A DNA stretch of 64,000 nt from Paracoccaceae bacterium (GTDB taxonomy: Bacteria; Pseudomonadota; Alphaproteobacteria; Rhodobacterales; Rhodobacteraceae): assembly GCA_027489355.1 (NCBI GenBank), contig JAIXZY010000049.1, positions 1 through 64,000 of the forward strand. Direction: 5' to 3'. Positions 1-5,000 of the stretch are shown here, in pieces. Positions within the stretch are counted from its first letter, which is position 1; every line of letters starts with the position of its first letter. The notes under the pieces are model-generated. The model had not been told where the DNA came from. It did no database searches and saw only the letters and a program-made list of their open reading frames with translations. The position numbers were made by a program, and so were the translations under genes.

Positions 1-810
1 CCAAGCCGTCCGCGTTGTATCGCCGGAGAACGGCGCCTGCGTCGCCATGTCACCGAGCGCGAGACGCCGGCACCAGAAATAGATGCCCACCACCACCGCC
101 CACCCGACGTACGGCAGCCACGTCCGCAGCGCGCGCCAAGAGCGGCCGCGTCCCAACCACACCGCATCGGCCACGAGCGCCATGATCGGCAGCGTCAGCC
201 CGAATTCCTTCGAAAACACCGCCGCGCCATACGCGAGCCAAAGCGCCGGCAGCCAACGTCCGGCCCCGGTGTCCCGGTAACGGACAAATGCCACGAAGCC
301 CGCCAGGTACGCCAGCGTCGGCACGATATCCACGCGACCGATCGTCCACGCGACCGGCTCCACATGCACGGGATGCACCGCGAACAGCAGCGCCGCGAGC
401 GCCGCGCACTGCACGCATCGCCCCGCCGCCCGCCACGTCAGCCAACCCACGAGCCCCGCGCACGCCGCGTGCAGCAGGAGATTCGTCAGCCGAAAGCCGA
501 ACGCATCCACGCCCCACACGCGCGCATCGAGCATCAATGTCAGCCCCGTGATCGGCCGCAGCTCAGGCAACGCGTAGCCCCAGACGCCGCCCGACCACTC
601 GCGCACGAACAACGTCGGCCACTCCGCCAGCGGCAACGCCGCGAAGCGCGAGACGTAGGCAAAATCGTCGCCCGCAAAACCGCCGCGCAGGCTTGGCCCG
701 TAGGCTTCAAGCGCCACCAGGAACGCGAACACCGCCGTCGCCCAGCCCGGGTGCGCGGAGATGGCGCGGAGCACGGCGCGAAGCGAGTCGCGAAGGGTGG
801 AAGCGGACAT
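1..810 (-). CDS. GT-C type membrane glycosyltransferase-like protein, C-terminus cut off
   Basis: The frame is open from the ATG at 810 to the left edge (270 residues, no stop), so the gene is partial. It is a polytopic membrane protein: hydrophobic segments lie near residues 23-40, 108-125, 136-147, 163-177, 187-199, 203-218 and 232-246. A GDDF acidic pair after the first segment (47-50) and an HPVHVEPVAW motif (146-155) match the O-mannosyltransferase/TMTC-like GT-C proteins common in Verrucomicrobia and Planctomycetes, which use lipid-linked sugars in the membrane. The start is chosen because the purU stop lies in the same frame just upstream. It follows purU by 21 nt. The substrate cannot be told. 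It belongs to the left block that does not look like Rhodobacteraceae. Confidence 0.7.
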   Translation of the reverse strand, partial: MSASTLRDSLRAVLRAISAHPGWATAVFAFLVALEAYGPSLRGGFAGDDFAYVSRFAALPLAEWPTLFVREWSGGVWGYALPELRPITGLTLMLDARVWGVDAFGFRLTNLLLHAACAGLVGWLTWRAAGRCVQCAALAALLFAVHPVHVEPVAWTIGRVDIVPTLAYLAGFVAFVRYRDTGAGRWLPALWLAYGAAVFSKEFGLTLPIMALVADAVWLGRGRSWRALRTWLPYVGWAVVVGIYFWCRRLALGDMATQAPFSGDTTRTAW

Positions 811-831
811 GCGGCGGCAGCGCGCGGAGCG

Positions 832-1707
832 TCAGTCGAAGATGACCGTCTTCCGCCCGTAGACGAGTACGCGATTCTCCAGGTGCCAGCGCAACGCCTG
901 GGCGAGCACCAGTTTCTCCAAATCACGCCCCTTTTGAATCAGCGCCTGCACCCCATGGCGGTGCGTCACGCGCGTGACATCCTGATGGATGATCGGACCG
1001 TCATCGAGCACCGCCGTGGCGTAGTGCGCCGTGGCGCCGATGAGCTTCACGCCGCGCTCGTGGGCCTGGTGGTAAGGACGCCCGCCCGCAAACGCCGGCA
1101 TGAACGAGTGGTGGATGTTGATCACCGGCCGCCCGAACTCGCCAAGGAACTCCGCGGAAAGCACCTGCATGTACCGCGCGAGCACCACGACATCGGCCTT
1201 CAACTTCCGCAGCAGCGCCAGTTGGCGCGCCTCGCCGGCGGCCTTGCCTCCCGGTGCGATCGGCAGGTGGTGGAAAGTGAGCCCGTACCCGCGCGCGGCC
1301 GCGGCGAGGTCGCGGTGATTCGACACCACCCCGACGATCTCACAGGGGAACTCGCCCGCGCGCCAGCGGAGCACCAGATCGTGGAAGCAGTGGTCCGCCT
1401 TCGACACAAAGAGCACGACGCGGGGCCGGTGCGCGGAATCGGTCACGACCGCGTTCATCTTCAGCTCGTCGCGCGCATAGGCGAGGAACGCCTTCTCTTC
1501 GGTCGCGGGCTTGGCGCCGGCCGGCGGCACCCACTCGATGCGCTGGAAAAAAATGCCCTCGTCCTCGTCGCGGTGCTGGTCGGCGTGCAAAATGTTTCCG
1601 CCGCGCTCGAAGATCCACCCGGCGGCGCGGGCAACGAGGCCGCGTTGGTCGGGACCGTGCAGCAGGGCGACGAGGGTGAGCGGGGCGGATTCGGCGGGTT
1701 CGGACAT
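832..1707 (-). CDS. purU: formyltetrahydrofolate deformylase
   Basis: PurU hydrolyses 10-formyl-tetrahydrofolate to formate and tetrahydrofolate, balancing one-carbon units in the cytoplasm. The 291-residue product is the usual length. An N-terminal ACT domain (about 10-85, LHGPDQRGLVARAAG) is followed by a formyltransferase-like domain with INIHHSF (metal- and folate-site His) and a GATAHYAT...DDGPII stretch carrying the catalytic Asp, and the protein ends in VYGRKTVIFD. The start at 1707 gives the normal N-terminus; an upstream extension in the same frame is low-complexity and not conserved. It lies between carB and the membrane glycosyltransferase gene, all on the minus strand. The sequence resembles Opitutales-type PurU more than alphaproteobacterial PurU (my judgement from memory, not a search). 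Confidence 0.88.
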   Translation of the reverse strand: MSEPAESAPLTLVALLHGPDQRGLVARAAGWIFERGGNILHADQHRDEDEGIFFQRIEWVPPAGAKPATEEKAFLAYARDELKMNAVVTDSAHRPRVVLFVSKADHCFHDLVLRWRAGEFPCEIVGVVSNHRDLAAAARGYGLTFHHLPIAPGGKAAGEARQLALLRKLKADVVVLARYMQVLSAEFLGEFGRPVINIHHSFMPAFAGGRPYHQAHERGVKLIGATAHYATAVLDDGPIIHQDVTRVTHRHGVQALIQKGRDLEKLVLAQALRWHLENRVLVYGRKTVIFD

Positions 1708-1942: not shown

Positions 1943-1973
1943 AACAAAAAGGGCCGTTCCTTGAACGGCCCCG
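1943..1973 (-). terminator. Rho-independent terminator after carB
   Basis: On the minus strand a GGGCCGTTC / GAACGGCCC stem with a 3-nt loop is followed directly by a run of five T. It starts about 30 nt after the carB stop at 2002, as expected for an intrinsic terminator of carB, and separates it from purU. Confidence 0.85.
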
Positions 1974-2001
1974 AACTACCGAAGCTTCAACTTTCCGCGG
2001 C

Positions 2002-5000
2002 TCAGACCATCGCGGTCGTGTTGTGGCGGTACTCCTGGATCGGGCGCACGCCGACCTGAAGGTTCTTCATCGCCTTGATGCCGTGCAGCGCCGCGCGGGC
2101 GCCGGTGAGCGTCGTAGAGATGGGAACATTGTTGGCGTAGGCCGCGGCGCGGATCGCGTTCTCGTCCTGACGCGGGATCATCCCGCGCGGCGTGTTCACG
2201 ACGAACTGGATCTCGCCGTTCTTGATCATGTCGACGCAGTTCGGGCGGCCTTCGTTGAGCTTGAAGACCGGCTGCACCGCGAGGCCCTGCGCCTGCAGAA
2301 GCTTCGCCGTGTTGGTCGTCGAGCAGACCGTGAAGCCGAGTTCGAGGAAGCCCTTGGCGAGCTCCACCACATGCGGCTTGTCGGAGTCCTTCACGCTGAG
2401 GAACACCTTGCCCTTGAGCGGCAGCGCGGGTTTGGCGGCCATCTGCGTCTTCGCGTACGCGATGCCGAGATCGTCGTCCATGCCCATGACCTCACCCGTC
2501 GAGCGCATCTCGGGGCTGAGCACGATGGCGGCGCCGGGGAAGCGGTTGAAGGGGAACACAGCCTCCTTCACGCACCAGTGCTTGGGTTGGATCTCCTGGG
2601 TGAAACCGAGCTCCTTCAGCTTCGCACCGGCCATGACGCGGGCGGCGAGCTTCGCGAGCGGGACGCCGATGGCCTTTGCCACGAACGGCACCGTGCGCGA
2701 CGCGCGCGGGTTCACCTCAAGCACGTAGAGCTGGTTGTCCTTGATCGCGAACTGGACGTTCATCAGGCCGACGACCTTGAGCGCCTTCGCGAGCGCGTAG
2801 GTGGCCTGCTTGACCGTCTGGCGCATCGCGGCGGAGAGCGTGTGCGGCGGCATCACCATCGCGGCGTCGCCGGAGTGCACGCCGGCGTATTCGATGTGCT
2901 CGAGCATGCCGCCGACGAGCGTCGTCTCGCCGTCGCTGATGCAGTCGACGTCGAGCTCGATCGCGTCCTCAAGGAACTTGTCGATGAGCACCGGCTTGCC
3001 GGGCATGACGCTGAAGACCTGGTGCACGACGTCGCGCAGCTCGGCCTCACTGTAGAGGATGAACATGCCGCGGCCGCCGAGCACGAACGATGGGCGCACG
3101 AGCACCGGGTAGCCCAGCTCGGCAGCGCACGAGATCGCCTCGGGCTCGGACATCGCGATGCGGTTGGCCGGCGACTTGAGCCCGACCTGGTCGAGGATGG
3201 CGGCGAAGAGCTTGCGGTCCTCGGCGGCGTCGATGCTTTCCGGCGAGGTGCCGATGACGTTCACGCCGCGGGCCTTCAGCGCGCTGGCGAGGTTGAGCGG
3301 CGTCTGGCCGCCGAACTGCGCGATGGCGCCGATGCAGCCTTCCTGCTCGTAGATCTCGAGCACGTCCTCGAGCGTGAGTGGCTCGAAGTAGAGGCGGTCG
3401 GAAGTGTCGTAGTCGGTCGAGACGGTCTCCGGGTTGGAGTTGACCATCACGGTCTCGAAGCCCGCCTCGCGCAGCGCGAACGACGCGTGCACGCAGCAGT
3501 AATCGAACTCGATGCCCTGACCGATGCGGTTCGGGCCACCGCCGATGATCATGATCTTCTTCTTCTTCGACGGCAGGATCTCGTTCTCGTCGCCGTAGCT
3601 CGAGTAGTAGTAGGGCGTGAACGCCTCGAACTCCGCGGCGCAGGTGTCCACGAGGCGGTACGTCGTGTTGACGCCGGCCTTCTTGCGCGCGGCGCGCATG
3701 GCGTCGAAGTCGGTCTTGAGGAAGTGGGCGAGCTGCGCGTCGGAGAAGCCGAACTGCTTCGCGCGGCGGAGCGTGCGCTCGTCGAGCTGGGAGAGCGTCA
3801 GCTTCTTCAGGGCCTGCTCCATCTCGTGGAGTTCGCGGAGCTGCGTGAGGAACCAGCGGTCGATCTTCGTCAGGTCGAAAATCTCATCGACGGTCATGCC
3901 GGCGAGGAACGCCCAGCGGATGTAGTACACGCGCTCGGCATTCGGCGTGCCGAGCTTCTGGCGGAGCGTCTGCTCGTCCGGCAGCTCGTCGCCGCCGTAC
4001 TTGCCGCCGCCGCCCCAGCCGCGTGCACCGGTCTCGAGGGAACGGAGGCACTTCTGGAAGGACTCCTTGAACGTGCGGCCGATGGCCATCGCCTCGCCGA
4101 CGGACTTCATCGCGGAGGTGAGCGTCGCGTTGGCGCCCGGGAACTTCTCGAACGCGAAGCGCGGGATCTTCGTCACGACGTAGTCGATCGTCGGCTCGAA
4201 GCTGGCGGGCGTCAGGCGCGTGATGTCGTTGCGCAGCTCGTCGAGCGTGTAGCCGACGGCGAGCTTGGCGGCGATCTTGGCGATCGGGAAACCGGTGGCC
4301 TTCGACGCGAGCGCGGAGGAGCGCGAGACGCGCGGGTTCATCTCGATCACGACAAGCCGGCCGTCCACCGGGTTCACGGCGAACTGCACGTTGGAACCGC
4401 CGGTCTCGACCCCGATCTCGCGCAGGACGGCGATACTGCCGTTGCGCATGATCTGGTATTCCTTGTCGGTCAGCGTGAGCGCCGGGGCGACGGTGATGGA
4501 ATCGCCGGTGTGGACGCCCATCGGGTCGATGTTTTCGATGGAGCAGACGATGATGGCGTTGTCGGCGCGGTCGCGCACCACCTCCATCTCATACTCTTTC
4601 CAGCCGAGCAGCGACTCGTCGACCAGGACCTGCGCGACGGGAGAGGCTTCGAGGCCCGACTTGATGATCGCCTCATAGTCGTCGCGGTTGTAGGCGACGC
4701 CGCCGCCGGTGCCGCCCAGGGTGAAGGCGGGGCGGATGATTGCGGGGAGGCCGACATATTCCAGGGCTTCCATCGCCTGCGCGATTCCGGCGGCGATGTC
4801 GTACTTGCCCGAGGGCAGCTTCGGCGCTGCGACGATGGTGGCCTTGGGGTTTTCGAGGCCGATCCGGTCCATCGCCTCGCGGAACAACTTGCGATCTTCT
4901 GCCATTTCGATGGCGTCGCGCTTGGCCCCGATCAGCTCGACGTTGAACTTTTCCAACACGCCCATGTCAGCGAGCGCCAGCGCGGTGTTCAGGCCCGTCT

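What the first reader, a model, noticed from the sequence alone, without database searches (positions are those of the whole stretch)
1..4360. Left 4.3 kb looks like a different organism, joined inside carB
CarB keeps one reading frame, yet its N-terminal third looks Rhodobacteraceae and the rest (linker, C-terminal MGS domain) looks verrucomicrobial/Opitutales. purU, a TMTC-like GT-C membrane protein and two palindromes found nowhere else lie on the foreign side. The switch falls in the most conserved stretch of carB (about 4260-4360), where two genomes could share k-mers. An assembly chimera is the simplest explanation; a natural in-frame recombination is the exciting alternative. Either way, genes left of 4.3 kb should not be used to describe the host.
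Basis: partly seen in the sequence, partly recalled or inferred. Interest (0 to 1): 0.82.

Follow-up and report, generated by a model that had tools for sequence, protein, structure and literature searches.

The report
Assembly chimera inside the carB gene
The first 4.3 kb of this contig comes from a different bacterium (an Opitutales relative) that assembly software almost certainly stuck onto a Rhodobacteraceae-type genome inside a very conserved gene, so it is an artefact and not a natural hybrid.

Summary
CarB lies on the minus strand. Its N-terminal part (window >=4548) has same-genus best hits (94-97% aa); its C-terminal part (2002-4333) has Opitutia best hits (87-93% aa), with the same carB-purU order. 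The decisive find is the missing half: contig C26 (15,159 bp) of the same genome ends inside a truncated carB holding the host-type C-terminal 862 residues. The genome has two carB C-terminal parts over the family cut-off but one N-terminal part. In 9 of 10 same-genus loci fetched, a C26-like and a window-like part form one contiguous carB. The true order is therefore C26, then C19 from about 4.5 kb. The switch is a zone, about 4334-4547, with a ~200-bp bridge that fits neither partner and most resembles another alphaproteobacterial family; 71 bp in it (4406-4476) equal C26. A patchwork through conserved carB, with both partners at contig ends, is best read as an assembly-graph error. Reads were not available. 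purU, the GT-C protein and the palindrome near 1.79 kb should not describe the host; 19 of 20 other same-genus genomes lack a PurU above cut-off.

The parts
1..810 (-). 5' part of a GT-C type membrane glycosyltransferase (PMT_2 domain), cut by the contig end; foreign side
   Evidence: Pfam PMT_2 E 5e-6; single copy in the genome; a relative (55% aa) lies about 1.6 kb downstream of carB in 1 of 80 Opitutia/Verrucomicrobia loci, L061
832..1734 (-). purU (formyltetrahydrofolate deformylase), foreign side
   Evidence: TIGR00655 330 bits, over cut-off; 87% aa to L037, same order and strand behind carB; only two distant matches (29-34% aa) elsewhere in the genome
1754..1845 (.). inverted repeats between purU and carB on the foreign side; TCCGGCTTCAGCCGGA at 1786-1801
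   Evidence: 1786-1801 unique in the genome
2002..4339 (-). carB residues ~313-1091, Opitutales type
   Evidence: 60-bp DNA identities 68-100% to L037/L038 versus 36-91% to same genus; C-part tree
4340..4547 (-). junction zone: about 200-bp bridge resembling a third alphaproteobacterium; bounds approximate
   Evidence: block 4340-4405: 74-80% to 11 same-genus loci, 71-77% to 13 Opitutia loci, up to 89% to genomes of another family of the class; columns
4406..4476 (.). 71 bp identical to C26 15028-15098 of the same genome
   Evidence: also identical in another genus of the host family (L121)
4548..5277 (-). carB residues 1-~244, host type
   Evidence: contiguous with a C26-like C-terminal part in 9 of 10 same-genus loci
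5340..5425 (.). dispersed host repeat upstream of carB, native to this genome
   Evidence: 24 listed matches on 12 contigs, self and palindromic reverse matches included

Best explanation
The window's first ~4.34 kb is a fragment of an uncultured Opitutales (Didemnitutus-like) genome that the metagenome assembler joined to a Rhodobacteraceae-type contig. carB's first ATP-grasp domain is so conserved that co-occurring species can share long exact words; the assembly path left the Opitutales carB, ran ~200 bp through what looks like a third alphaproteobacterium's carB, and came out in the host's carB. Because the pieces are homologous and in register, the frame stayed open. The host's own carB C-terminal part was left as the broken end of contig C26. 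Shown: the two sources, the orphan half, contiguity in relatives, the 71-bp identity. Inferred: that the cause is an assembly-graph error (confidence 0.97), and that the bridge has a third owner (less sure, about 0.85).
For: Two carB C-terminal parts but one N-terminal part over the family cut-off (five more matches, all below cut-off, are short stretches in other proteins); C26 ends inside carB. C26's carB part is 83-89% (DNA) like 10 same-genus carBs and falls among them in the tree. 9 of 10 fetched same-genus loci carry both host-type parts in one carB; 6 of 10 also keep C26 DNA beyond carB beside it. The foreign part is at the very start of contig C19. Left carB-purU order matches Opitutia relatives: 51 of 80 loci hold a PurU match (some loci are cut short). 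A patchwork of identities within ~210 bp.
Against: No reads or coverage could be examined. C26's last 61 bp, after the 71-bp identity, are less like the same genus (81% mean) than the window's 4477-4537 (88%), so C26's tip may itself be contaminated and the two contigs do not simply overlap. 4 of 10 same-genus loci show no C26 DNA beyond carB (L018, which holds only ~1.5 kb there, L142, L143, L149). The bridge's owner is not identified: best 90% over 211 bp in 398 genomes drawn from the phylum. Base 4530, which separates window from host genus, also disagrees with the two genomes most like 4340-4405 (L119, L120).
Confidence: 0.97

Rival explanations
1. Natural in-frame recombination or gene transfer: an Opitutales carB C-terminal part with purU replaced the host's own in the living cell.
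For: The frame is open throughout and the product would have the CarB domains. A single contig alone cannot exclude it.
Against: A host-type C-terminal part is present in the same assembly, broken at the homologous place on a contig end, and there is no second N-terminal part over the cut-off. Of the 12 same-genus relatives, 11 have carB and none shows an Opitutales-type C-terminal end (44-48% aa to the window's C-terminal domain in 10; G003 85% DNA to C26); G012 gave no carB. A third-source bridge would need two events in one conserved stretch.
Confidence: 0.01
2. Still an assembly chimera, but a simple two-way one at the 71-bp identity, with 4340-4405 and the C26 tip being noise or strain variation (a variant within the 0.97 of the best explanation).
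For: 71 bp identical between window and C26 is a plausible shared graph node; base 4530 does not agree with the best bridge matches.
Against: 4340-4405 averages 77% to 11 same-genus sequences while C26 there averages 88%; base 4530 differs from all 11 same-genus sequences and C26 but agrees with 9 of 11 fetched genomes of family f18.
Confidence: 0.1
3. The left 4.3 kb is native and the reader was misled by conservation.
For: GC content is similar on both sides.
Against: Identities, synteny, tree and tetranucleotides disagree.
Confidence: 0.005

Closest known systems
Interspecies chimeric contig in short-read metagenome assembly (general kind, from own knowledge and the listing)
   Same: Two organisms joined at a conserved, homologous stretch, at a contig end, with the displaced true partner left as a contig end in the same bin
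   Different: The coding frame is preserved over a 1091-residue enzyme and a third source seems to bridge the two; the hybrid passes a full-length CarB model
Opitutia carB-purU locus (L037 JACPIT010000005.1, L038 JAGOQJ010000001.1)
   Same: Gene order and strand, ~93% aa over CarB residues 331-1091, 87% and 81% aa PurU
   Different: In those genomes carB continues with its own N-terminal part

Membership tests
Assembly chimera | Two parts of one gene with different nearest lineages | tested here: met
Assembly chimera | Join inside near-identical sequence shared by the genomes involved | tested here: met
   71 bp identical to C26 in a conserved ATP-grasp stretch. No long shared word was shown at the Opitutales-to-bridge join
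Assembly chimera | Displaced native partner present as a contig end | tested here: met
   C26, 15,159 bp, ends in carB
Assembly chimera | Coverage break or lack of spanning reads | not testable with these tools
   no reads available
Natural recombinant carB | Host lacks its own replaced part | tested here: not met
   host-type part present on C26
Natural recombinant carB | Same hybrid in relatives | tested here: not met
   not seen in the 11 of 12 same-genus genomes that gave carB; independent assemblies of this same species were not available
carbamoyl-phosphate synthase large subunit (CarB) | Full-length match to TIGR01369 | tested here: met
   1474 bits, positions 1-1049 of 1052; but the molecule as written is a composite

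The most novel reading that the evidence does not exclude
A living cell carries an in-frame Rhodobacteraceae-Opitutales hybrid carB made by inter-phylum recombination, next to a separate broken native copy.
Probability: 0.01. Interest if true: 0.8.

Novelty: not a real feature. Interest (0 to 1): 0.1.

Why it matters
As biology it is nothing. As quality control it matters: the hybrid protein looks intact, passes a full-length family cut-off, and the genome is rated 98% complete with 1.3% contamination, yet its CarB, purU and glycosyltransferase would mislead gene-transfer, phylogenetic and metabolic inferences. Two other MAG contigs show a similar-looking switch in the same part of carB (L040, L043).

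Tried and rejected
GC and GC skew did not reveal the join. Tetranucleotide log-odds placed the left part between host and Opitutia means, so composition alone is weak. I looked for the owner of the bridge in 398 genomes of the phylum and in plasmid records: best 90% and 88% (Rhizobium leguminosarum), so no owner was found. The idea that C26's last 61 bp belong to that same owner (a swapped pair of paths at the 71-bp node) was tested and not supported: the five genomes most like 4340-4405 (88-89%) are 77-82% like the C26 tip; the best single match to the tip is L127 (90%, and 85% to 4340-4405). In the N-part tree rows L016, L039, L042 and L043 are artefacts: these contigs lack most or all of the N-part and the search took the homologous C-terminal half; I disregard them. 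L040 and L107 also fall outside the other Opitutia there, so that tree is not clean; printed supports may be shifted by re-rooting. L040 led; its N-part partner was not identified. I considered carB a hotspot for contig breaks, but the count does not clearly show it: 6 of 80 loci have their upstream contig edge inside the first 800 bp of carB, against 4, 0, 2, 4, 3 and 2 in the six 800-bp bins upstream, and downstream bins reach 7. Paper searches (no paper; listing of 12 of 105, nothing opened): chimeric contigs in metagenome assembly are a familiar topic there; I make no claim about what is or is not in print on carB.

Full report
What was claimed. The left ~4.3 kb of the window was said to come from another organism and to be joined to the rest inside carB. 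I tested the join base by base and looked for the host's own missing piece.

Setting. The window is the start of contig C19 (286,013 bp) of a 4.21-Mb, 81-contig genome rated 98% complete and 1.3% contaminated. carB is on the minus strand, so its N-terminal part is on the right. It is one open frame.

Two sources. Against 16 alphaproteobacterial and 17 Opitutia/Verrucomicrobia loci, the six highest-scoring hits over CarB residues 1-245 are all same-genus genomes (94-97% aa); over residues 331-1091 they are all Opitutia-labelled MAGs (L038 and L037 at 93%, the rest 87-88%). In the trees the N-part falls among the same genus and the C-part beside L037 and L038 (18-row Opitutia clade, printed support 0.99). 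The collection scan with the left CarB part kept the best 80 of 183 related loci; all 80 bear Opitutia, Verrucomicrobia or narrower such names. Behind carB the left side carries purU in the same order and strand as in relatives: 51 of these 80 loci hold a PurU match at E <= 1e-6, though some loci are cut short. Only one, L061, has a relative of the GT-C protein near carB (55% aa). The left 4340 bp are a tetranucleotide outlier for this genome (3.9 sd; 1 of 77 segments is as far). On the right side, next to carB, sits a repeat with 24 listed matches on 12 contigs of the same genome, itself included.

The missing half. A CarB model finds two C-terminal parts but one N-terminal part over the cut-off; five further matches lie below it. 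The second C-terminal part is on contig C26, whose 15,159 bp end inside carB. C26's carB part is 83-89% identical in DNA to ten same-genus carBs. In 9 of 10 same-genus loci fetched, a C26-like C-terminal part and a window-like N-terminal part form one contiguous carB; the tenth (G011) is itself split in carB. Of the other two same-genus relatives, G006 has carB split over two contigs and G012 gave none. In 6 of 10 loci, C26 DNA beyond carB also lies beside it; in 4 it does not, one of them (L018) holding only ~1.5 kb there. I conclude that the host's true order is C26 followed by C19 from about 4.5 kb.

The join. Diagnostic columns are mainly Opitutales-like up to 4333, mixed between 4348 and 4405, and mainly host-like from 4548 (a few columns go the other way on each side). 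The Opitutales part therefore ends somewhere between 4334 and about 4363. The block 4340-4405 fits neither partner (11 same-genus loci 74-80%, 13 Opitutia loci 71-77%) but fits genomes of another family of the same class up to 89%. The 71 bp 4406-4476 are identical to C26 15028-15098, and also to another genus of the host family. Base 4530 disagrees with all 11 same-genus sequences and with C26; it agrees with 9 of 11 fetched genomes of that other family (handle f18), but not with the two most like 4340-4405 (L119, L120). I read 4340 to about 4547 as a bridge from a third organism, with moderate confidence. The phylum search gave at best 90% over 211 bp, in f18 (mostly 5-7 Mb genomes); the best plasmid record was Rhizobium leguminosarum at 88%. 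That f18 is Rhizobiaceae is inferred. C26's last 61 bp are less host-like than the window's 4477-4537 (81% against 88%), so C26's tip may be contaminated too; this is unresolved.

Consequence for annotation. PurU above the family cut-off occurs in this genome only on the foreign piece, and in 1 of 20 other same-genus genomes. The glycosyltransferase fragment and the palindrome at 1786-1801 have no second copy in the genome.

Other contigs. Of the 80 loci, 7 have a contig edge inside carB, 6 of them between residues 81 and 265, but neighbouring 800-bp bins hold up to 4 upstream and up to 7 downstream edges, so this is not a clear excess. Two of the 7 show a sudden loss of identity: L040 is at best ~91% like its relatives on the C-terminal side and at best 77% on the N-terminal side, switching near residues 242-259; L043 starts with ~145 bp of unlike sequence (best 80%) followed in frame by carB (best 90%) with ~43 residues missing. 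The loci were chosen by their C-terminal part and no other gene was used as a control, so this is a lead and not a rate.

Verdict. Assembly chimera, about 97% sure.

Noticed in passing
L040:1-560 (JANYAM010000147.1): Opitutus-labelled MAG contig whose carB drops from ~91% to at best 77% identity with its relatives near residue 250, a probable second chimera in the same part of carB; partner not identified.
   Followed up: partly
L043:1-160 (JAUPWC010000654.1): Verrucomicrobiota MAG contig beginning with ~145 bp of unlike carB fused in frame to Opitutia-type carB with about 43 residues missing between; probable misassembly.
   Followed up: partly
window 5340-5425, 13630-13705, 16242-16319, 31921-31976: Family of short palindromic repeats (TTCGAAGGATTTTGCAAATTTCTTCGAAGAAATTTG at 5373-5408) dispersed over at least 12 contigs of the host genome.
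   Followed up: partly
G011:C18 (L033) and G011:C113 (L150): A same-genus genome whose carB is also split between two contig ends, C18 ending near residue 331 and C113 starting near residue 537.
   Followed up: no
G008:C33:51956-52729: The only other same-genus genome of 20 with a PurU above cut-off; whether native or contamination was not checked.
   Followed up: no
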